Shown: positions 21,722 to 30,535 of the stretch, piece by piece | Position numbering within the stretch: the stretch's first letter is position 1 | Layout of the letters: each line of letters opens with the position of its first letter | From: Afipia sp. | GTDB taxonomy: Bacteria > Pseudomonadota > Alphaproteobacteria > Rhizobiales > Xanthobacteraceae | DNA: 33,658 nucleotides | Direction: 5' to 3' | Assembly: GCA_017474385.1 (NCBI GenBank) | Contig: JAFVHU010000053.1 | Span: forward strand, 1 to 33,658 | Made by a program: the position numbers and the translations under genes | Notes under the pieces: generated by a model | Databases searched by the model: none | Told to the model about the DNA's origin: nothing | What the model saw: the letters and a program-made list of their open reading frames with translations, nothing else

Positions 21722-22027
21722 TCAGATCGGCTTCAGCGAACCGTGCTTGCCACCCGGGACGGCGATCGACTCGCAGGTGCCGCCCTGCACGAACTTCCAG
21801 GCGTTGCCCTGGAAATCGACGTTGGACGTTCCCTGGCAGGTGGTGCCGGGACCAGCGGCGCAGTCGTTCTGACCCTTCAGGGCGACGCCGTAGCACTTCA
21901 CCTTGTGGGCAGAGACGGCGGCCTGCTCTTCGGCCTTGGTCAGCGGCGCTGCCATGGCGATCGAGGCCAGCGCGCTCGAAACGGCGCCGGCGATAATCAG
22001 CGAACTGATTGTGGACTTTGCGGACAT
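21722..22027 (-). CDS. bufA: BufA1-type bufferin precursor (DUF2282)
   Basis: Small exported precursor (101 aa) of the bufferin RiPP class. The signal peptide (hydrophobic [19 protein letters not shown], cleavage near residue 27) is followed by a DUF2282 core with four Cys: C45 (VKCYGVA), C56 (NDCAAG), C64 (TTCQG) and C85 (GTCESI). In characterised bufferins the MNIO enzyme turns Cys residues into copper-binding thiooxazoles. AAGGAG precedes the ATG at 22027 by seven bases; a TTG one codon earlier is less likely. A sigma-F-type promoter lies at 22077-22102, giving a short leader. Confidence 0.92.
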
Positions 22028-22076
22028 CAAAATACTCCTTGTTGGGTTGTGCCTGTTTTGGGCGGCACGAGAGGTG

Positions 22077-22134: not shown

Positions 22135-22686
22135 TCAGGCGGCGTCGCGTGCGTGAACGACCGGGAAGTCGACGTCGGTCTTTGCGACTTCGTTGACGTA
22201 GTTCGTCAGCGTGTTGAGAGCGACGTGAAGCACGATCTCAAGGATCTGAGCGTCGTCGTATCCGGCCGCACGAACGCTCTGCAGCGCTGCGTCGTTCACG
22301 TGGCCACGCTCGCGCGTCACGGTTGCCGCGAACTTCACCGCAGCGTCAGCCTTGGGATCGTTGGAGGCGCCATTGCGGTTGGCGGTGATCTCGGCGTCGT
22401 CGAGCTTGGCGAGATTCTTGCCGAGGTAGGTGTGAGCCGACAGGCAGTAGTCGCAACCGTTGATCTGGGCGACGGCAAGGGCGATCCGTTCGCGAGTCGG
22501 AGCCGGCAGCTGGCCCTTTCCGAGCGCGCCGAACAGGCCGAGGTAACCCTCGAGCGAGGCCGGGCTGGTCGCCACAAGGCGGAACAGGTTGGGGACGCTG
22601 CCGAGCTGCTTGTTCACGGCGTCGAGGAAGGGCCGAGAAGCGGCGGGAGCGGCGTCGACGGAGGCGGGGATGGCGATGCGGGACAT
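22135..22686 (-). CDS. AhpD-like carboxymuconolactone decarboxylase family protein
   Basis: AhpD-fold protein (183 aa). The active-site pattern GCDYCLSAH gives C78-x-x-C81 with H85, as in peroxidase-related alkylhydroperoxidase-type proteins. Two similar helical units follow the CMD domain pattern (ERIALAVAQINGCDYC, then ILEIVLHVALNTLTNYVN). It probably has thiol-dependent peroxidase or reductase activity in the cytosol. It stands upstream of bufA on the same strand but has its own promoter region carrying copy A of the 31-bp LysR-type element, so it seems regulated together with the genes at 24880-29519 rather than with the buf operon. Confidence 0.9.
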   Translation of the reverse strand: MSRIAIPASVDAAPAASRPFLDAVNKQLGSVPNLFRLVATSPASLEGYLGLFGALGKGQLPAPTRERIALAVAQINGCDYCLSAHTYLGKNLAKLDDAEITANRNGASNDPKADAAVKFAATVTRERGHVNDAALQSVRAAGYDDAQILEIVLHVALNTLTNYVNEVAKTDVDFPVVHARDAA

Positions 22687-22768
22687 TGGTGCAATTCCTT
22701 GTTTCGGTCAGGCGTCATTGCCTGACACGTTTTGTATTCGCTTCCGCATTTGCCGAATATCGTGCTTC

Positions 22769-22799
22769 CTTGGAACTTTATCTTCCAGGAATTGAGAGG
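22769..22799 (-). promoter_or_regulatory. 31-bp LysR-type element, copy A
   Basis: On the coding strand of the AhpD-like gene it reads CCTCTCA-N5-TGGAAGAT-N4-TTCCAAG. It matches copy B at 23 of 31 positions. It ends 82 bp before the start codon. Confidence 0.7.
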
Positions 22800-22845
22800 A
22801 CAAAAACAGCGCTTGTGGTGGAAGCGCTCGCGCAATCCCTGCAGC

Positions 22846-22893
22846 AAATCAGTCTGGACACTCGGATTTAAATCAGTCTGGACACTCGGATTT
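22846..22893 (+). repeat. Perfect 24-bp tandem duplication
   Basis: AAATCAGTCTGGACACTCGG plus ATTT occurs twice head to tail with no mismatch (22846-22869 and 22870-22893). No gene covers it. Confidence 0.9.
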
Positions 22894-23235
22894 AATGGCG
22901 GCGCTGTTTCGCTCGACGCGCACCGAAATCGATTTCCCGCGATCGTATGAAAAGCGACGCCGGAACATCGCGCGATGTCACGTCAGTAAAATCATCACAC
23001 GCCACGATGCTCTGCCTGGTGGCACCGACAGGGACAGACCGCAGCTCTGAAGTAATTGTGGCTACTGGCTTAACCGGAGACATCAACGATGGCATAAGCA
23101 GATGCCTTTCGAATGATCATGCCGGCATTCGTTGTCGCGACCGCGCTCGTACCATCGATGAGCAACGTGGCAACGCCGAAATCAACTGCGCCCGCAGACC
23201 ATTTGACCCGTCGTAAATAACGTCCGGAGATTTCA

Positions 23236-23937
23236 ATGTCAGAGTTTCCATACCGCACAGCACTCATTATCGGAGCTGGCACGGGGATCAGTGCATCGGT
23301 TGCCCGCCAGTTGGCGGGACTCGGCGTCAAGGTCGCACTGGCCGCCCGCAGCACTGCGAAATTAAAACAGCTGGATGATGAGATTGGCGCAAAGGTCTTC
23401 TCGGCGGACGCTTCTGACCGAGCCTCTGTCGAGGCATTGTTTCGCGACGTGGACGCCACGATCGGAGAGCCCGACGTGGTTGTGTTCAATGCCAGCGCGC
23501 GGGCGCCTGGGCCAGTCGCAGAAATCGATCCTGTCGCAGTGGAGAAGGCGCTTGCTATCAGCGCTTACGGCGGGTTTCTCGCGGTCCACCATGCGGCGCG
23601 ACGCATGGTGAAGCATGGCAAGGGAGCCATTCTTCTCACAGGGGCATCCGCCAGCGTGAAGGGCTTTCCACGCTCCTCGGCATTTGCGATGGGCAAGTTT
23701 GCTCTACGCGGATTGGCCCAGAGCGCCGCGCGTGAACTGGGGCCGATGGGCATCCACGTTGCGCATTTTGTCATCGATGGAGCTGTTCGATCCGCGTCGC
23801 GTTCGGATCCGCAGGACAATCCCGATAGTACACTGTCGGCCGACGCGATCGCGCAAACCTACATCGACATCCTTCGCCAGCATCGCAGTGCCTGGTCATT
23901 CGAAGTCGAGGTACGCCCCTGGGTCGAGAAATTCTAA
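23236..23937 (+). CDS. SDR-family protein with Phe in place of the catalytic Tyr
   Basis: Rossmann-fold short-chain dehydrogenase-like protein (233 aa). The nucleotide-binding loop is ALIIGAGTGISAS, an incomplete form of TGxxxGxG. The active-site region reads LLTGASAS then SSAFAMGKFALRG, so F150 replaces the catalytic Tyr while K154 is kept. This matches the divergent SDR_c10-like group described as lacking the normal tetrad. It may bind NAD(P)H without classical dehydrogenase chemistry. CCGGAGA precedes the ATG. It stands alone on the + strand between leftward units. Confidence 0.88.
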   Translation: MSEFPYRTALIIGAGTGISASVARQLAGLGVKVALAARSTAKLKQLDDEIGAKVFSADASDRASVEALFRDVDATIGEPDVVVFNASARAPGPVAEIDPVAVEKALAISAYGGFLAVHHAARRMVKHGKGAILLTGASASVKGFPRSSAFAMGKFALRGLAQSAARELGPMGIHVAHFVIDGAVRSASRSDPQDNPDSTLSADAIAQTYIDILRQHRSAWSFEVEVRPWVEKF

Positions 23938-24003
23938 CCAGCCGAACACAGCATTTCGGAACTCCGGGTACATATTCTGCGCCGCGCAGCGTTAGCCTTG
24001 TCG

Positions 24004-24795
24004 TCAAGCAGGTCGTTTCAGAAAGCTCCGAACCTCATTCACGAAGATCTCCGATGCTTCCCAAGGGGCCGCGTGGCCAGCCGTCTCAAGACGAATTCTC
24101 GTGGCTTTGGGAATTGCATTGGTCAGTTCGTCGGAATAGGGGGCAGGCAAGACGACGTCACGCTCGCCTGAAATCACCAAGGTCGGGCTCACCAGACCGG
24201 TAAGGCGATCGAGCGTGTCAGCCTGACTTGCAGCGTTCGCGCCTCTACAGAATGCATCTGCGGATTGATCGTGAAAGAGCGGGTTCGTAAGCGCCGTGAT
24301 CGCGTGAAGCGGAGCACTCGCGAGCACGTCGGGATGGCTCAGATTAAAGGTCATGACCTCACGGAAGTGGGCATCAGGGAGATGCCTCTTCAATATCCGC
24401 CAGGTTTCGAATTTGTTCGCCAGATATTGATCTGTCCGCGCCCAGCTGTTCGCGAGGATCAGCTTGCGCACGCGGTTCGGGTCGCGCAGCGCGAACTCTT
24501 GCGCAATCTGCCCGCCGAGCGAATGACCAAGGATGCTGACTTGCTCGAGACCAAGATCGTCGAGAACGGCACGAACGTCTGCCGACATATCCGACAGAGC
24601 GTATTGCTGTGCGGTCGTAGAGCTTCCGCCGGCATCTCGATTGTCGATAAGCACGATCTTGAAGCCGACCAGCATTGACGCCAGCGGCCGCCACGGACCG
24701 ATATCCATGGCCAGCCCAGGCAGGATGAGGAGGGGTTCACCTTCTCCAACGACGTCATAGTGCAGGACGGCGTCGGCATTGCGGACTAACGGCAT
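24004..24795 (-). CDS. Alpha/beta hydrolase
   Basis: Alpha/beta-hydrolase fold protein (263 aa). The nucleophile elbow is GHSLGGQ (S92), the acid is D213 (GERDVVLP) and the base is H241 (AGHAAPWE); the oxyanion region is LPGLAMDIGPW. It resembles 3-oxoadipate enol-lactonase or BioH-like hydrolases, but the substrate is not predictable. The ATG at 24795 is preferred because CGGAG lies 7-8 bases upstream; an in-frame GTG at 24831 would add 12 unlikely residues. It starts 84 bp after the NTF2-like gene and is probably cotranscribed with it. Confidence 0.88.
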   Translation of the reverse strand: MPLVRNADAVLHYDVVGEGEPLLILPGLAMDIGPWRPLASMLVGFKIVLIDNRDAGGSSTTAQQYALSDMSADVRAVLDDLGLEQVSILGHSLGGQIAQEFALRDPNRVRKLILANSWARTDQYLANKFETWRILKRHLPDAHFREVMTFNLSHPDVLASAPLHAITALTNPLFHDQSADAFCRGANAASQADTLDRLTGLVSPTLVISGERDVVLPAPYSDELTNAIPKATRIRLETAGHAAPWEASEIFVNEVRSFLKRPA

Positions 24796-24879
24796 AACTA
24801 AACTCCGAGCAGGACTTACCCTTGGCTGCACGGCGGTGCGCCAAGCATCGTCGTGGCCTCGCCACGAAATGAGCGGGGG

Positions 24880-25344
24880 CTACAGTCCCAGTTCGCTAAG
24901 GGAGGGATGATCGTCCGGCCGGCGACCCAACGGCCAGTGAAACTTGCGATCGGCTTCGGCGATCGGCAAGTCATTGATGCATGCGAAACGCCGATGCATC
25001 AAACCATCCGGCGCGAACTCCCAGTTCTCGTTTCCATAGCTGCGAAACCAGTTTCCGCTGTCGTCATGCCATTCATAGGCGTAGCGAACGGCGATGCGGT
25101 TCTCGGAAAACGCCCAGAGCTCTTTGATCAGCCGGTAATCGAGCTCTTTTGCCCACTTGCGTGTGAGGAAGGCAACGACCTCGCTTCGTCCATTCACGAA
25201 TTCCGCGCGGTTTCGCCAAACCGTGTCCTGCGTGTAGGCGAGCGAGACCTTTTCGGGATTCCTCCCGTTCCAGCCGTCTTCGGCAAGGCGGACTTTTTCG
25301 ACAGCGCTCTCTCTGGAAAACGGGGGAAGTGGGGGTCGGGTCAT
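24880..25344 (-). CDS. NTF2-like protein (DUF1348)
   Basis: Nuclear transport factor 2-like protein (154 aa), DUF1348 family. The pattern [26 protein letters not shown], then [21 protein letters not shown] and [29 protein letters not shown], is characteristic. The biochemical function of the family is unknown; the cone-shaped pocket suggests small-molecule binding. It heads a leftward unit with the alpha/beta hydrolase. Copy B of the 31-bp element ends 69 bp before its start, and the LysR gene lies just upstream on the same strand. Confidence 0.88.
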
Positions 25345-25413
25345 GGCACTCGTCTTCTCGTTGATTGGAGAGACAAACGTAGATGGCCAGCCGTATTGGT
25401 AAAATACTGTAGA

Positions 25414-25444
25414 GTTGGAACGTTATCTTCCATTTCTTGGAAGG
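25414..25444 (-). promoter_or_regulatory. 31-bp LysR-type element, copy B
   Basis: On the coding strand it reads CCTTCCA-N5-TGGAAGAT-N4-TTCCAAC. It contains the palindrome CTTCCA-N5-TGGAAG followed by a further TTCCAA half-site. It shares all three blocks with copy C (21 of 31 positions, all matches inside the blocks). It lies between the LysR stop and the NTF2-like start. Confidence 0.75.
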
Positions 25445-25486
25445 ACGTAGTTTGCCCCCACGACAGACCGGACGCGCCGCCCACCA

Positions 25487-26497
25487 TTAAGCCGACTGGT
25501 CGGCCGCCTTTCGTGATTTGCGCGGCCCAGTGCTGGCCGCCGGTGCTGTGTCAGCTTCGTTCTCCTCCGGGCGCCCCTGTGGCTTTGCACTCCGTGATTT
25601 GGCCTGAGAGAGACTCGCCCGCAATCGTGGGGTCATAAAGTCAAGGAACGCGCGAAGCTTGAGAGGAATCATCCCTCCGCCGCGGTAGACGAGACTGACA
25701 GGAATTGGGGGTGGTTCGAAATCTTCCAGAATAGTGACGAGCTCGCCTTTACGAACGGCATCTTCGACTTGATAAGACAGCACTCGCGTTACGCCGGCTC
25801 CGAGTTTAGCTGCGTCGATCGAAGCTTCCGCCGTCGTCGCAATAAGCCTGGAATGGACGGGCACCACTACGGGCGCCTTTGCAGTCCCGAAATTCCATGA
25901 TTGCGGGTTGGATTGTCCCTCGAAAGTGATGCATGAAAGCTCACTTAGGTCGGCGGGCTTTGCGGGAGTCCCGTGCTTATCGAAATAGGCTGGGCTGCCG
26001 CATACGACGCGCCGTATTTCACCAACCTTTGTCGCCAGAAGCGTGCTGTCGGGGAGGAGACTGATGCGCAGGGCCGCATCGATGTGCTCTTCCATAAGAT
26101 TTGTGACCCGGTCGGCAAGTGCCAAGCGCACGTCGACCTCTGGATAGGCTTCGAGAAATGCCGCGATTGGTGGCACCATGTGCAGCCGTCCAAACACAAT
26201 GGGCGCCGTGACGACGAGGTCTCCCCGTGGCGCGATGTATTCGCCGGCCGCGGCGCGCTCTGCTTCATTGATCTGCTGGAGAATACGTTTGCTCGCGGCG
26301 ACGTACGCTTCGCCGGCGTCCGTGAGTGTCAGGCGCCGGTTTGAACGGTTGAGAAGTTTTGTTCTTAGGTGGGCTTCGAGGTCCGACACCTTCCTGCTGA
26401 CGGTCGCCAGTGGAACGCCGAGCGCCCTTCCGGCGGCAGACAGGCTGCCTTTTTCCACGGTGGCGACTAGCAGTGTCATTGCCTCGATTCGATCCAT
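25487..26497 (-). CDS. LysR-family transcriptional regulator
   Basis: LysR-type regulator (336 aa). The HTH spans about residues 4-62 (MTLLVATVEKGSLSAAGRALG, then ATVSRKVSDLEAHL and LLNRSNRRLTLTDAG). The effector domain is at about residues 90-295. A basic, Ala/Pro-rich tail of about 40 residues follows (SQAKSRSAKPQGRPEENEAD and beyond), which is unusual. It is divergent from the GST-like gene and directly upstream of the NTF2-like gene. Copies B and C of the 31-bp element flank it, so it is the best candidate to bind all three copies. Confidence 0.92.
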   Translation of the reverse strand: MDRIEAMTLLVATVEKGSLSAAGRALGVPLATVSRKVSDLEAHLRTKLLNRSNRRLTLTDAGEAYVAASKRILQQINEAERAAAGEYIAPRGDLVVTAPIVFGRLHMVPPIAAFLEAYPEVDVRLALADRVTNLMEEHIDAALRISLLPDSTLLATKVGEIRRVVCGSPAYFDKHGTPAKPADLSELSCITFEGQSNPQSWNFGTAKAPVVVPVHSRLIATTAEASIDAAKLGAGVTRVLSYQVEDAVRKGELVTILEDFEPPPIPVSLVYRGGGMIPLKLRAFLDFMTPRLRASLSQAKSRSAKPQGRPEENEADTAPAASTGPRKSRKAADQSA

Positions 26498-26647
26498 CTA
26501 ACTCTCACATTTTGGAAGCGCGCGGCGGGAACAATACACTTACATGGGGAAATCGGAAGGTGGCGCCGCCGTTTTTAGGTCGAATGGCAAAAAGGGCCCG
26601 GCGAAACGCCCGATTTGTCGGGGCCGTAAAGCGAAGAAATCGCGCTT

Positions 26648-26678
26648 CCTTCCATTCTTTGGAAGATTGGCTTCCAAA
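26648..26678 (+). promoter_or_regulatory. 31-bp LysR-type element, copy C
   Basis: Reads CCTTCCA-N5-TGGAAGAT-N4-TTCCAAA on the + strand, upstream of the GST-like gene. The two overlapping palindromes are CTTCCA-N5-TGGAAG and TTGGAAG-N5-CTTCCAA. It lies in the 309-bp divergent region between the LysR gene and the GST-like gene, 128 bp before the latter's start. Confidence 0.75.
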
Positions 26679-26806
26679 CTCACGTAATTCCTGAGGGATA
26701 CGGAAGCGCCTAGTTTGGCCCGGCTCGTAGGTGCTGGACTCGGTCTCCGGTGCCGGTTGGACGCATCGCGTTTTTCGATGGTCCGCGGTTTTCTCAGGAG
26801 GTTGAC

Positions 26807-27427
26807 GTGAAGCTTTACTACCTGTCGTTATCCGGTCATTCGCATCGCGCCCGCTTGTTCCTTTCGATCCTTGGCGCCGATGTCGAGCAGATCGAGCTTG
26901 GTGGCGGAGATCTGCGCACGGCCGAGTTTCTGCGCATGAATCCATTCGGACAGGTGCCCGTGCTTGTCGATGGCGATGCCGTCATTGCGGATTCCAACGC
27001 AATCCTGGTGTATCTCGCCAAGAAGTTCGACAGGAAGGACTGGTTGCCGGAGAGCGCTGTGGAAGCCGCGGCCGTTCAGAAATGGCTTTCTGTTGCGGCC
27101 AACGAGATTGCGAACGGGCCTTGTGCGGCGCGTTTGATCACCGTGTTCAAGGCATCGTTCGACCCGGAGGACACGATCGCCAAAGCGCACAAGGTGCTGC
27201 GGCTTGTTGAGCAGGCGTTAGCTGGGCGGGATTGGATCGCCGCGAAAGGACCGACGATCGCGGACATCGCGCTGTACAGCTACACATCGCATGCCCCCGA
27301 GGGGAATGTGGATCTGTCGGATTACTCGAATATCCGGTCATGGCTGGCCCGAGTTGAGGCGCTCCCCGGCTTCCTTCCGTTTGCGGAAACGCCGGTCGGC
27401 CTTAGAGCGAGTGCGGCCAATGGCTGA
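26807..27427 (+). CDS. Glutathione S-transferase-like protein
   Basis: GST family protein (206 aa). The thioredoxin-like N-terminal domain is [22 protein letters not shown], with [23 protein letters not shown] carrying the cis-Pro and the E/D-S glutathione-binding pair (here DS). An all-helical C-terminal domain ends GLRASAANG. The start is GTG at 26807: AGGAGG lies five bases before it and family homology begins there; a longer upstream frame is unsupported. The stop overlaps the following reductase start by eight bases (ATGGCTGA). It is divergent from the LysR regulator, with copy C upstream. Confidence 0.9.
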
Positions 27428-29519
27428 CGTGGTCGACCGGCCTCAAGCCGCACCGGCTGAGAAGAGCCGGCCGATCGACACGCCCTCTATATGGCATGCG
27501 GGCGAGATGGCGCTTCAGGAGACGGTCGGCGTTCGACGCGCCATGGAACGTCAGGGCGCCCAGGTTATTCGCGACCATCTGATCGATCAGCATCGACTTT
27601 TTTTTCCGCTGCTGCCGTCGATCATCATCGGAGCCGTCGATGAAAACGGTGATGTCTGGTCGACGATGAGAGAAGGCCCGGCAGGCTTCCTGTCCGTGGC
27701 CGACAACAAGACCCTTGAGATCGCCGCGACGGTAGACGTTTCGGATCCCGCCGAAGCGGGACTTTCGGATGGATGTTCCGTCGGTCTGTTGGGTATTCAG
27801 CTGGGGACACGCCGGCGCAACAGGCTGAACGGCGTCGTACGCGGTCGTGGCGCAAATGGCTTTAGCGTCGGTGTGCGAGAAAGCTACGGAAACTGTCCGC
27901 AGTATATCCAGTTGCGCAACTATTCGTTCGAACCTGCGCCTGCGAGCCGTCCTTCGCGCCAGGAGTCAGCCGAGCTCAGCGACGTTCACCGTGCGATGAT
28001 CGCCGCCGCCGATACATTCTTTGTCGCCTCCTATGTCGATCGCGATGGCTCCCGGCACGTTGATGTCTCTCACCGGGGCGGCAAACCGGGCTTTGTGCGC
28101 GTCAACAAAGACGGCTCGCTCACAATCCCCGATTTCGCCGGGAATCTGTACTTCAACACGCTTGGCAATATCCTGGTGAGTGGTCGCGCCGGCTTGTGTT
28201 TCCCAGACTTCGAGTCCGGATCACTCCTGCAGATCACCGGAAAAGCGGAAGTGTTGCTGGACTCCCCTGAGATCGCGCTGTTCCAGGGGGCCGAACGGTT
28301 GTGGCGCGTCTATCCCGAGCGCGTCGTCTATCGCGCCGGCGCGCTGGCGTTGCGGTGGACGAAGGTAGAGGGCGGCGAATCTCCCAATAGCTTGATGACG
28401 GGGAGCTGGGATGAGGTGCGAGACCAGCAGGCAGCATCGAAGGAAGCTTCCTCTTGGAGGCGGTTCCGCGTTGCTCGTCGGGTTCGGGAGAGCACGACCG
28501 TTAGCTCGTTTTTCCTGGAGCCTGCCGATGGCGAGGTTCTGCTTCGTCACAAGGCAGGTCAGTATTTGCCGATTAGGGTACACATCGGCGACCAGGATGC
28601 CCCCGCCATTCGCAACTATACCATTTCGGCTGCGCCGTCTGATGGCTGTTATCGGATCAGCGTGAAGCGCGAGGGTGCGATCTCGTCTTTCCTGCATGAC
28701 CGTTGTGACGTCGGCACGATTATCGAGGCACGCGCCCCGGAAGGTAGTTTCGGTCTGCGTCCGGCGGGAAAGAGACCATCGGTGTTGGTAGCGGCCGGTA
28801 TCGGAATTACGCCGATGATCGCCATGCTGCGCCATCGCCTGTTTGAGCGACAGAGGACGAGATCTGCGAAACAGACGTGGCTTTTTTATTCGTCTCGTTC
28901 GGTAAGCGAGCAGCCTTTCGATCGCGAGCTTCACGCGATCGCGACGAACTCGACTGACTGGCTGCGCGTTGTTCGGCTTCTTTCCAACACCCAAGGCGCC
29001 ATGGCGGCTCGAGACTATGAGTTGGGAGGACGACTGACGGCGGAGGTGATAAAAGACGCTTTGCCGTCGTTGAACTGTGACTTTTACCTGTGTGGACCGC
29101 CAGGCTTTATGCAGGACATGTATGACGGGCTGCGTGCATTCGGCGTGTCGGACGATCAATTGTTCGCTGAGGCCTTTGGACCGGCCGCGTTCCGTCGACA
29201 TGGTACGGAAGCGCTTCCGCCGCTTCCGAGCGCTTCGACGAAGCCGGTGAGCGTGGTATTCTCCAAAAGCGGGACAGAAGCACTTTGGGAGCCGGAATCG
29301 GGCACGTTGTTGGAGCTCGCAGAGCGCGCCGGTTTGACGCCCGATTTCAGTTGTCGGTCCGGATCTTGCGGCACATGCAGGGCAATGGTCAGCCAAGGTG
29401 AGGTGACCTACGAGAACCGCCCGGGCTATGAGACACGGGATCAGGAAGCTCTCTTATGTTGCGCTTTTCCGGCCGAGCGTCCGGCCGACGATCGTCGACC
29501 GCTGGTCATTGAGCTGTGA
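27420..29519 (+). CDS. PNPOx-like / ferredoxin reductase / 2Fe-2S ferredoxin fusion protein
   Basis: Three-domain electron-transfer flavoprotein (699 aa). Residues about 25-330 are a pyridoxamine-phosphate-oxidase-like split barrel ([46 protein letters not shown]). Residues about 345-590 are a ferredoxin-NADP reductase unit with the flavin motif RNYTIS (398-403), the nucleotide-binding AAGIGITPM and CGPPGFM (558-564). Residues about 605-699 are a plant-type 2Fe-2S ferredoxin with C645, C650, C653 and C680 or C681. Electrons probably pass from NAD(P)H via FAD to the iron-sulfur centre and possibly to a flavin on the N-terminal barrel. The ATG overlaps the GST-like stop, so the two are coupled. 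Confidence 0.92.
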
Positions 29520-29893
29520 GGCGGCGGCAGGGACAGGAGAGACGAGCGGCGGAAGCTGCGCCTGGTGAGAAGTTGCATTTTGGCAGAGAGCGTTGTGGCC
29601 CAGCAGACTCTCGGCCGCGCTGCCGAACTAACTTTCGCATCATAACTCTGTAACAAAGCGGCGTTCGGCAACGAACTCGTTATTGTAGCCGTTACGCTCC
29701 CATGCCCAAGGGCGTCAGGGCGGCCGGATATCCGACCGGGGCCGATATGTAGCCCTTGGGTTGGCTGATGAGGCGGTGATTCTTGCGTTGCAGGCGGTCC
29801 GTTTACCGATGAAACGGACACCGAACCTGAGGCGCCGCCAATTTCCGGAACGCGGCCTGTGGCGCAGTGACGTCAGGGCCGGAAAGTTGGGCG
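29520..29893. other. Intergenic leader region of the NrsF-type gene
   Basis: 374 bp without a supported gene. It holds an ECF-type promoter (29650-29675) and an inverted repeat CCCAAGGGC/GCCCTTGGG (29705-29713 and 29752-29760) that would form a hairpin in the transcript leader. No sigma factor gene or fragment was found, although sigma-F genes usually precede nrsF. Confidence 0.6.
29650..29675 (+). promoter_or_regulatory. ECF sigma-F-type promoter of the NrsF-type gene
   Basis: GTAACA-N16-CGAA, the same spacing and boxes as the bufA promoter. It lies about 220 bp before the start codon, so the mRNA would have a long leader that includes the hairpin at 29705-29760. Confidence 0.6.
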
Positions 29894-30535
29894 ATGCGAA
29901 CAGAAGCTCTTGTCAAGACGCTGTCGGAAGATTTGAAGCCGGTGCGTCCCCGAAGTTTCAGGCGCGATGCTGTCATCCTGGGCGTCGTGGCAATCCTGGA
30001 GTTCGCGGCCTTTGCCGGGGCAGGCTTCATGCGCCCGGATCTCTCGCACGCGATGCATATGCCGTCCTTTTGGTGGAAGTTGGCGAGCATGGGGGCAATC
30101 GCGATTTCAGGCGCAGCCGTTGCATTGTTCTCGTCTGACCCCACGAAATCACCGAAAGCCGGCCTTCGATGGCTTGCGATCGCGGTCGCGCTAATCTTCG
30201 CCTCCGGATGGTTGATAGATGCCCTGGAAGGCGGTTTTTCTGAGCTTGTGAGGCGACTCGACTGGCAGATGGGCCTTCAATGCACCTGGAAGATGGTGAC
30301 CCTCTCCGTACCGTTGGTTGTCGCGTTGGGTGTTCTCATTCAGCGCGGCGCGCCCACGGATCGGTTCGGGACATCGTTGGCGGCGGCACTGGGATCGGCC
30401 GGGTGGGGCGCCTTTATTTTCGTCTTTGCCTGTCCCTCGGATGACGTCCTTTATATCGCGGTTTGGTATTCTGTCGGTTGCGCGATCGTGACGGTTATTG
30501 GCAGGTTGATACTGGCGAGGCTGGTTCGCTGGTAG
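29894..30535 (+). CDS. nrsF: NrsF-type anti-sigma factor (DUF1109)
   Basis: Six-helix inner-membrane protein (213 aa) of the DUF1109 / NrsF family, which holds ECF sigma-F inactive at the membrane until metal or redox stress. Membrane segments include AVILGVVAILEFAAFAGAGF, ASMGAIAISGAAVALF, WLAIAVALIFASGWLI, LSVPLVVALGVLI, WGAFIFVFA and AVWYSVGCAIVTVIG. The two conserved Cys are C130 (GLQCTWKM) and C180 (FACPSDD), equivalent to the pair needed for sensing in Caulobacter NrsF. The ATG at 29894 gives the normal length. No sigma gene is adjacent, which is unusual. Confidence 0.88.
   Translation: MRTEALVKTLSEDLKPVRPRSFRRDAVILGVVAILEFAAFAGAGFMRPDLSHAMHMPSFWWKLASMGAIAISGAAVALFSSDPTKSPKAGLRWLAIAVALIFASGWLIDALEGGFSELVRRLDWQMGLQCTWKMVTLSVPLVVALGVLIQRGAPTDRFGTSLAAALGSAGWGAFIFVFACPSDDVLYIAVWYSVGCAIVTVIGRLILARLVRW

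What the first reader, a model, noticed from the sequence alone, without database searches (positions are those of the whole stretch)
22769..26678. A 31-bp three-block element in three promoters defines an unreported LysR-type regulon
Read on the coding strand, CCTTCCA-N5-TGGAAGAT-N4-TTCCAA occurs at 26648-26678 (GST-like and fusion reductase) and 25414-25444 (NTF2-like and hydrolase). A variant with CCTCTCA as the first block occurs at 22769-22799 (AhpD-like). Copies B and C are identical in all three blocks and differ only in the spacers, which is the signature of selection on protein contacts rather than of recent duplication. All copies have the same orientation relative to the gene, 69-128 bp before the start. 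The LysR gene at 25487-26497 lies between copies B and C. The regulated set (GST, PNPOx/FNR/ferredoxin fusion, DUF1348 protein, alpha/beta hydrolase, AhpD-like) suggests a coordinated redox or electrophile-detoxification pathway.
Basis: partly seen in the sequence, partly recalled or inferred. Interest (0 to 1): 0.85.

Follow-up and report, generated by a model that had tools for sequence, protein, structure and literature searches.

The report
LysR regulator with four local operators
A bacterial LysR-type gene switch has several copies of its likely DNA docking site in front of itself and of detoxification-type genes, and the same switch with the same kind of site recurs in many other Proteobacteria, so this is very probably a real regulon of an ordinary design.

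Summary
The element is real. Three exact copies lie at 22770-22799(-), 25415-25444(-) and 26648-26677(+); each is 30 bp, not 31. The core has no other exact match in the 4.48-Mb, 84%-complete genome. A 68-bp promoter model trained only on LysR promoters of other genomes ranks the three copies first to third in the window. A like site lies beside the start of related LysR genes in 26 of 29 family loci and upstream of the LysR gene in 55 of 80 named loci. In 39 of those 55 the divergent partner is a CMD (AhpD-like), PNPOx or GST gene, families also found in the window. The blocks read as half-sites, TTCC-N7-GGAA-N7-TTCC, 11 bp apart, as in LysR-type operators. A fourth, partial site (26502-26518) beside the LysR start was missed. 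The regulon claim is supported for the CMD and GST-fusion promoters and weaker for DUF1348-hydrolase: none of 29 other DUF1348 loci examined has the site. Ten searches of an open-licence library listed no description of it. Binding, effector and physiology are untested. New member of a known kind.

The parts
22770..22799 (-). Operator copy A (CCTCTCA-N5-TGGAAGAT-N4-TTCCAA), 83 bp before the CMD start codon
   Evidence: second-best hit of the relatives-only 68-bp matrix in the window
25415..25444 (-). Operator copy B (CCTTCCA-N5-TGGAAGAT-N4-TTCCAA), 70 bp before the DUF1348 start codon
   Evidence: third-best hit of the 68-bp matrix; its downstream promoter half does not match
26648..26677 (+). 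Operator copy C (CCTTCCA-N5-TGGAAGAT-N4-TTCCAA), 129 bp before the GST start, in the LysR/GST divergent intergenic region
   Evidence: best hit in the window; only hit below E 0.01 in the genome with model R1
26502..26518 (+).
   Evidence: columns 0-18 of the matrix rank it 8 of 67,282 positions, the full 68 columns score only -7.6
26678..26716 (+). Promoter extension of copy C matching the conserved downstream block (GGAAGGGnCTA-like)
   Evidence: columns 28-68 of the relatives-only matrix rank this position 1 of 67,238
22731..22769 (-). Promoter extension of copy A
   Evidence: columns 28-68 rank this position 8 of 67,238
25487..26497 (-). LysR-type regulator, 336 aa (HTH_1 + LysR_substrate)
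22135..22686 (-). AhpD-like / carboxymuconolactone decarboxylase (CMD) family protein with a CDYC motif; presumed target of A
24880..25344 (-). DUF1348 (SnoaL/NTF2-like) protein; presumed target of B
24004..24795 (-). alpha/beta hydrolase, 84 bp downstream of DUF1348 on the same strand; perhaps the same transcript (inferred)
26807..27427 (+). Glutathione S-transferase-like protein (GTG start assumed); presumed target of C
27420..29519 (+). PPOX-like / FAD-NAD reductase / 2Fe-2S ferredoxin fusion protein, overlapping the end of the GST gene

Best explanation
The three-block element is the operator of the LysR-type protein encoded at 25487-26497. It consists of three half-sites, TTCC-N7-GGAA-N7-TTCC, 11 bp apart, so that all face about the same side of the helix. 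Half-sites 1 and 2 form the recognition dyad. Half-site 3 is probably the activation half-site towards the target promoter, whose conserved block lies about 25-40 bp further on. One regulator thus controls itself (site D, and C in the divergent region), the GST plus PPOX-reductase-ferredoxin operon (C), the AhpD-like gene (A) and probably the DUF1348-hydrolase pair (B). Shown here: the sites, their geometry, and their conservation with this LysR clade and, in part, with CMD and GST-fusion genes. Inferred: binding by this protein, autorepression plus effector-dependent activation (the usual LysR-type mode, from general knowledge), and a detoxification role.
For: 26 of 29 LysR-homologue loci of the family carry a gaplessly alignable site beside the LysR start; 24 of 29 reach seed score 13 of 16, against 8 of 2000 random stretches. 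Model R1 gives 58 matches in 80 named loci; 55, in 55 loci, lie upstream of the LysR gene. By matrix, 61 of 71 loci with LysR identity of 47% or more score 8 or more, against 2 of 8 below. Partners in the 55 loci: CMD 18, PNPOx 16, GST 5, MBL 4, SDR 3, hydrolase 2, other 7. L146 has a site directly before a GST-fusion pair. In G261 a TTTC-N7-GAAA-N7-TTTC site stands before a GST-fusion pair about 725 kb from that genome's closest LysR relative. The own-genome C57 paralogue (41%) has a different upstream sequence.
Against: No binding or expression data. B lacks the conserved downstream block (rank 2053 of 67,238), and none of 29 other DUF1348 loci examined scores 8 or more upstream (best 2.2). 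R1 finds only C below E 0.01 in the own genome; a weak opposite-strand partial hit (E 7) overlaps A, and B is not found. Over 28 columns alone, A scores better in the reverse orientation (17.3 against 14.2) and one of 20 shuffles reached 19.5. 25 of 80 named loci have no R1 match upstream of LysR, 15 of them with CMD, PNPOx, GST, SDR, MBL or hydrolase partners as picked. Six of 15 CMD and seven of 13 fusion loci lack a site. LysR relatives at the fusion loci are only 40-44% identical. Complementarity between half-sites exceeds shuffles only modestly (57 and 67 of 2000 as high; relatedness not controlled). A loose pattern gives 8 further places in the genome against 2 for its reversed control; only one was examined.
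Confidence: 0.87

Rival explanations
1. The sites are bound mainly by another regulator, such as a paralogous LysR protein encoded elsewhere in the genome, and the neighbouring LysR gene is only one of its targets.
For: The genome holds two further relatives at E up to 1e-40. The C57 paralogue (41%) is also divergent from a PNPOx-like gene.
Against: The site sits beside LysR genes of this clade and is rarer beside more distant ones (61 of 71 against 2 of 8). The C57 paralogue's own upstream region scores -4.4 and reads differently. The third relative was not examined.
Confidence: 0.06
2. The true regulon is smaller: the LysR protein controls itself, the GST-fusion operon (C) and CMD (A), while copy B is a weak, recently acquired or non-activating site.
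For: B lacks the conserved downstream promoter block and the 29 other DUF1348 loci examined lack the operator.
Against: B is identical to C in all three blocks. DUF1348 follows CMD beside an operator-bearing LysR in L043 and L172, and lies in the LysR-fusion-GST neighbourhood of L247.
Confidence: 0.25
3. The copies are a chance match or the trace of a recent local duplication, with no regulatory meaning.
For: All three lie within 4 kb, and B and C share 21 of 21 block positions.
Against: B and C differ at all 9 spacer positions, and like sites stand upstream of the LysR gene in 55 of 80 named loci.
Confidence: 0.01

Closest known systems
LysR-type transcriptional regulator operators (T-N11-A box, recognition plus activation sites)
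   Same: Imperfect dyad in a divergent LysR/target intergenic region with a further half-site towards the target promoter. TTCC-N7-GGAA contains T-N11-A in B and C. The T-N11-A motif, an extended consensus CTATA-n9-TATAG and an architecture of repeated motifs IR1-IR3 appear in passages of PMC5002191.
   Different: Half-site TTCC/TCTC rather than that AT-rich consensus. In copy A the first half-site (TCTC) breaks the T-N11-A rule.
OxyR-type four-half-site operators (ATAG-N7-CTAT-N7-ATAG-N7-CTAT; recalled, not from a call)
   Same: Same 4-N7-4 spacing repeated at 11 bp.
   Different: Other half-site; only three clear half-sites. OxyR is not named among the four distinct solved sequences matched at E up to 1e-20 (3mz1, 3hhg, 3t1b, 3szp); OxyR itself was not compared.
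CrgA / YafC / AaeR group of LysR-type regulators
   Same: Closest named relatives found: NCBIfam YafC 190 bits and AaeR 140 bits; PDB 3hhg E 3.1e-37 (that 3hhg is CrgA is recalled).
   Different: Far below the equivalog cut-offs (470 and 425). The bs1 site reported for P. aeruginosa CrgA at alkB2 (GGGA-N3-GGC-N-GG-N-CGG-N3-AGGG mirror repeat; passages of PMC6422896) does not resemble this operator.

Membership tests
LysR-type transcriptional regulator (protein) | N-terminal HTH_1 and C-terminal LysR substrate-binding domain above Pfam cut-offs | tested here: met
   HTH_1 59.3 bits (cut-off 26.6), LysR_substrate 110 bits (cut-off 28)
LysR-type operator | Site in the intergenic region upstream of the regulator gene, conserved with it | tested here: met
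   26 of 29 family loci; 55 of 80 named loci
LysR-type operator | T-N11-A within an interrupted dyad | tested here: inconclusive
   Present in B and C; not in A, whose first half-site is TCTC; relatives vary in the same positions
LysR-type operator | Binding by the cognate protein and effector-dependent change | not testable with these tools
   needs footprinting and expression data
YafC / AaeR equivalogs | NCBIfam equivalog cut-off | tested here: not met
   190 against 470 and 140 against 425 bits
OxyR | OxyR-type regulator with redox cysteine pair | not tested
   Only geometry compared, from memory; C166 and C189 are invariant in 16 aligned relatives, equivalence to OxyR cysteines not examined

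The most novel reading that the evidence does not exclude
One LysR protein with one operator type acts as a portable control cassette kept across Alpha-, Beta- and Gammaproteobacteria (and found in one myxobacterium), while the enzyme placed under it is repeatedly exchanged among at least six families (AhpD-like, PNPOx, GST-fusion, SDR, metallo-beta-lactamase fold, alpha/beta hydrolase). All would then act against the same, still unknown, inducer class, and the window's organism has gathered several of these modules under four operators within 4 kb.
Probability: 0.45. Interest if true: 0.55.

Novelty: new member of a known kind. Interest (0 to 1): 0.42.

Why it matters
It gives an operator model and a conserved regulator for enzyme families whose physiological role is unclear (DUF1348, CMD/AhpD-like, PNPOx-like, the PPOX-reductase-ferredoxin fusion), and so a direct way to find what they respond to: look for the inducer of one LysR promoter. 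If the partner swapping is functional, the shared regulator points to a shared class of substrate for unrelated enzymes.

Tried and rejected
Other regulon members in the own genome: patterns and model R1 gave none that I could support. One search gave 11 places: A, B, C and 8 others, against 2 for the reversed pattern. Only one of the 8 (C57:40586) was examined; it overlaps open reading frames on both strands. Plasmid origin: no megablast match in the plasmid collection. Base-by-base covariation between half-sites: only weakly above shuffles (that script stopped at its last slid control and before printing the half-site counts). DUF1348 as a conserved target: not supported, no site in the 29 other loci examined, the best of the matches listed. 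The P. aeruginosa CrgA site as the same motif: rejected on the passages seen. R1 or exact-string sites outside the LysR promoter that were not resolved: L172 at 2624, two in L082, one in L078 (about 320 bp before a CMD gene), L083 at 9085 before a PNPOx gene (exact string; R1 does not report it). Literature: ten searches listed no description of this regulon. I saw listings and abstract starts, and opened passages of two papers only; the library holds open-licence papers only, so this is no proof of absence.
Full report
Observation. The exact pattern occurs at 22770-22799(-), 25415-25444(-) and 26648-26677(+). B and C agree at all 21 block positions and differ at all 9 spacer positions; A carries CCTCTCA first. 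In the window 10 matches with up to 3 mismatches to the core were found (3 of them the same sites read on the other strand), against a shuffle mean of 1.93 and maximum of 5. In the 4.48-Mb genome (84% complete) only these three exact core matches exist; one other place with one mismatch lies in apparent coding sequence, judged by eye.

Anatomy. The blocks resolve into half-sites TTCC-N7-GGAA-N7-TTCC. Four bases from the LysR start codon lies a fourth, partial copy D, CTCTCA-N5-TGGAAG at 26502-26518. It ranks 8 of 67,282 positions for the first 18 columns of the relatives' matrix but lacks half-site 3 and scores only -7.6 over 68 columns.

Neighbouring genes. LysR (HTH_1, LysR_substrate), CMD/AhpD-like, DUF1348, alpha/beta hydrolase, GST, and a PPOX-like/FAD-NAD/2Fe-2S fusion. 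An SDR gene at 23236-23937(+) lies between A and the hydrolase; no copy faces it.

Conservation with the regulator. Of 149 family genomes searched with the LysR protein, 111 had a match at E up to 1e-40. Thirty loci were returned, from among the best matches; 29 are not the window. I accepted a site near the LysR start in 26 of these, aligned without gaps over 68 bp. The three left out are L049, L053 and L056; L049 has the same seed score (12 of 16) as two that I kept (L046, L064), so the cut is partly by judgement. 24 of 29 score 13 or more; in 2000 random stretches 8 did, and 79 reached 12 or more. The seed was written after viewing 19 of the loci, the window's own included, so the stronger tests are the columns outside the seed and the later sets.

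Test on the window. The 68-bp weight matrix from these 26 sites, with no window sequence in it, ranks C (41.5), A (23.3) and B (9.3) first to third in the window; the best of 20 local shuffles was 5.1. With 28 columns A and B are less clear: one shuffle reached 19.5, and A scores higher read the other way (17.3 against 14.2). Columns 28-68 alone rank C 1st, A 8th, B 2053rd and D 1087th of 67,238, so the promoter part supports C and A, not B. Model R1 over the own genome found C (E 3.7e-4) and one weak opposite-strand partial hit (E 7) overlapping A.

Wider set. A profile scan of named genomes gave 80 loci, a capped list. R1 found 58 matches at E up to 1; 55, in 55 loci, lie upstream of the LysR start (within about 185 bp), one is the same site read backwards (L119), and two lie elsewhere: L146, directly before a GST-fusion pair, and L172 at 2624, not interpreted. 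At least two of the 80 contigs equal training contigs by length (L122, L186). By record title most of the 80 loci are Alphaproteobacteria; loci with a site also include Pseudomonas, Halomonas, Raoultella, Variovorax, one myxobacterium (Enhygromyxa) and one contig titled Acidobacteriales. By weight matrix, 61 of 71 loci with LysR identity of 47% or more score at least 8, 56 of them within 15 bp of the start, against 2 of 8 at 46% or less; L193, a partial gene, was left out. Score 8 is about the 99th percentile (7.9) of 2540 random 380-bp stretches, a null that probably still contains a few real sites, since its maximum was 32.7. In 100 family genomes R1 at E up to 0.01 hit 23; of the 24 places, 20 adjoin a LysR relative (most were training sites; L103, L107 and L113 were not), one is window C, one (L116) stands before a GST-fusion pair, and two (L114, L115) have no recognised neighbour.

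Partners. In 78 of the 80 loci a divergent open reading frame was picked by a simple longest-frame rule. Pfam counts at E up to 1e-8 were CMD 23, PNPOx 19, GST 6, metallo-beta-lactamase 6, SDR 5, hydrolase 3; the rest had single or no families. The rule errs at times: in L172 it missed a CMD gene that BLAST finds. By BLAST cluster, the 55 loci with an operator have CMD 18, PNPOx 16, GST 5, metallo-beta-lactamase 4, SDR 3, hydrolase 2, other 7; the 25 without have CMD 6, PNPOx 4, SDR 2, hydrolase 1, GST 1, metallo-beta-lactamase 1, other 10. The CMD proteins are up to 76% and the GST proteins up to 60% identical to the window's; L155 carries a fusion 53% identical over 670 residues; other PNPOx partners match only part of the fusion at 28-39%, and the SDR proteins are 25-29% identical.

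Targets looked up separately. Fusion: of 13 non-window loci, LysR and GST both appear in 6 (L244, L245, L246, L247, L249, L252), and a DUF1348 gene in L247; the LysR relatives in these loci are only 40-44% identical. Sites of the same geometry, with TTCC or TTTC first half-sites, stand upstream in L244, L249, L252, L253, L254 and L255 (28-column scores 11.6 to 17.5), not in the other seven; the regions scanned were about 1,140 bp, longer than the null's 380. CMD: 9 of 15 non-window loci score above 8; two of these are training loci seen again (L228, L230), and one (L235) scores in the reverse orientation. DUF1348: 0 of 29 non-window loci do, these being the best of the matches listed; in L213 the gene follows an operator-bearing CMD gene. 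In L238-L242 and L116 the half-sites have shifted towards TTTC.

Which regulator. The own-genome paralogue on C57 (41%) is divergent from a PNPOx-like gene, but its upstream sequence scores -4.4 and reads differently; a third relative was not examined.

Mechanism. Most likely a LysR tetramer holds half-sites 1 and 2, represses its own gene through the site beside its start, and on effector binding engages half-site 3 to activate the target promoter. This is inferred from general knowledge of LysR-type regulators and from geometry; nothing was measured. Complementarity between half-sites across 86 sites exceeds column shuffles only modestly. The electrophile or redox role rests on gene families only.

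Literature. Ten searches of the open library listed nothing on this regulon. I saw search listings with abstract starts and, for PMC6422896 and PMC5002191, passages. The two DUF1348 papers listed concern cercosporin resistance in a fungus.

Verdict. It is a new member of a known kind.

Noticed in passing
21722-22030 (-) and 29867-30535 (+): A bufferin-like DUF2282 gene and an NrsF anti-sigma-F gene flank the region.
   Followed up: no
about 22862-22909: A tandem duplicate of about 24 bp (AAATCAGTCTGGACACTCGGATTT) in the CMD/SDR intergenic region, seen by eye.
   Followed up: no
L200, L216, L225 upstream of DUF1348: Some DUF1348 orthologues show a different, palindrome-like GATCGGT-containing sequence upstream, suggesting another regulator.
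   Followed up: no
25487-26497: Two cysteines (C166, C189) are invariant in the 16 aligned LysR proteins.
   Followed up: no
G000:C132:4400-4852 (L271): A second DUF1348 gene (68%) in the same genome; no operator-like site scored above 0.3 in the 9-kb stretch.
   Followed up: partly
L238-L242: In one genus the operator before CMD genes has shifted to TTTC-N7-GAAA-N7-TTTC in all three half-sites.
   Followed up: partly
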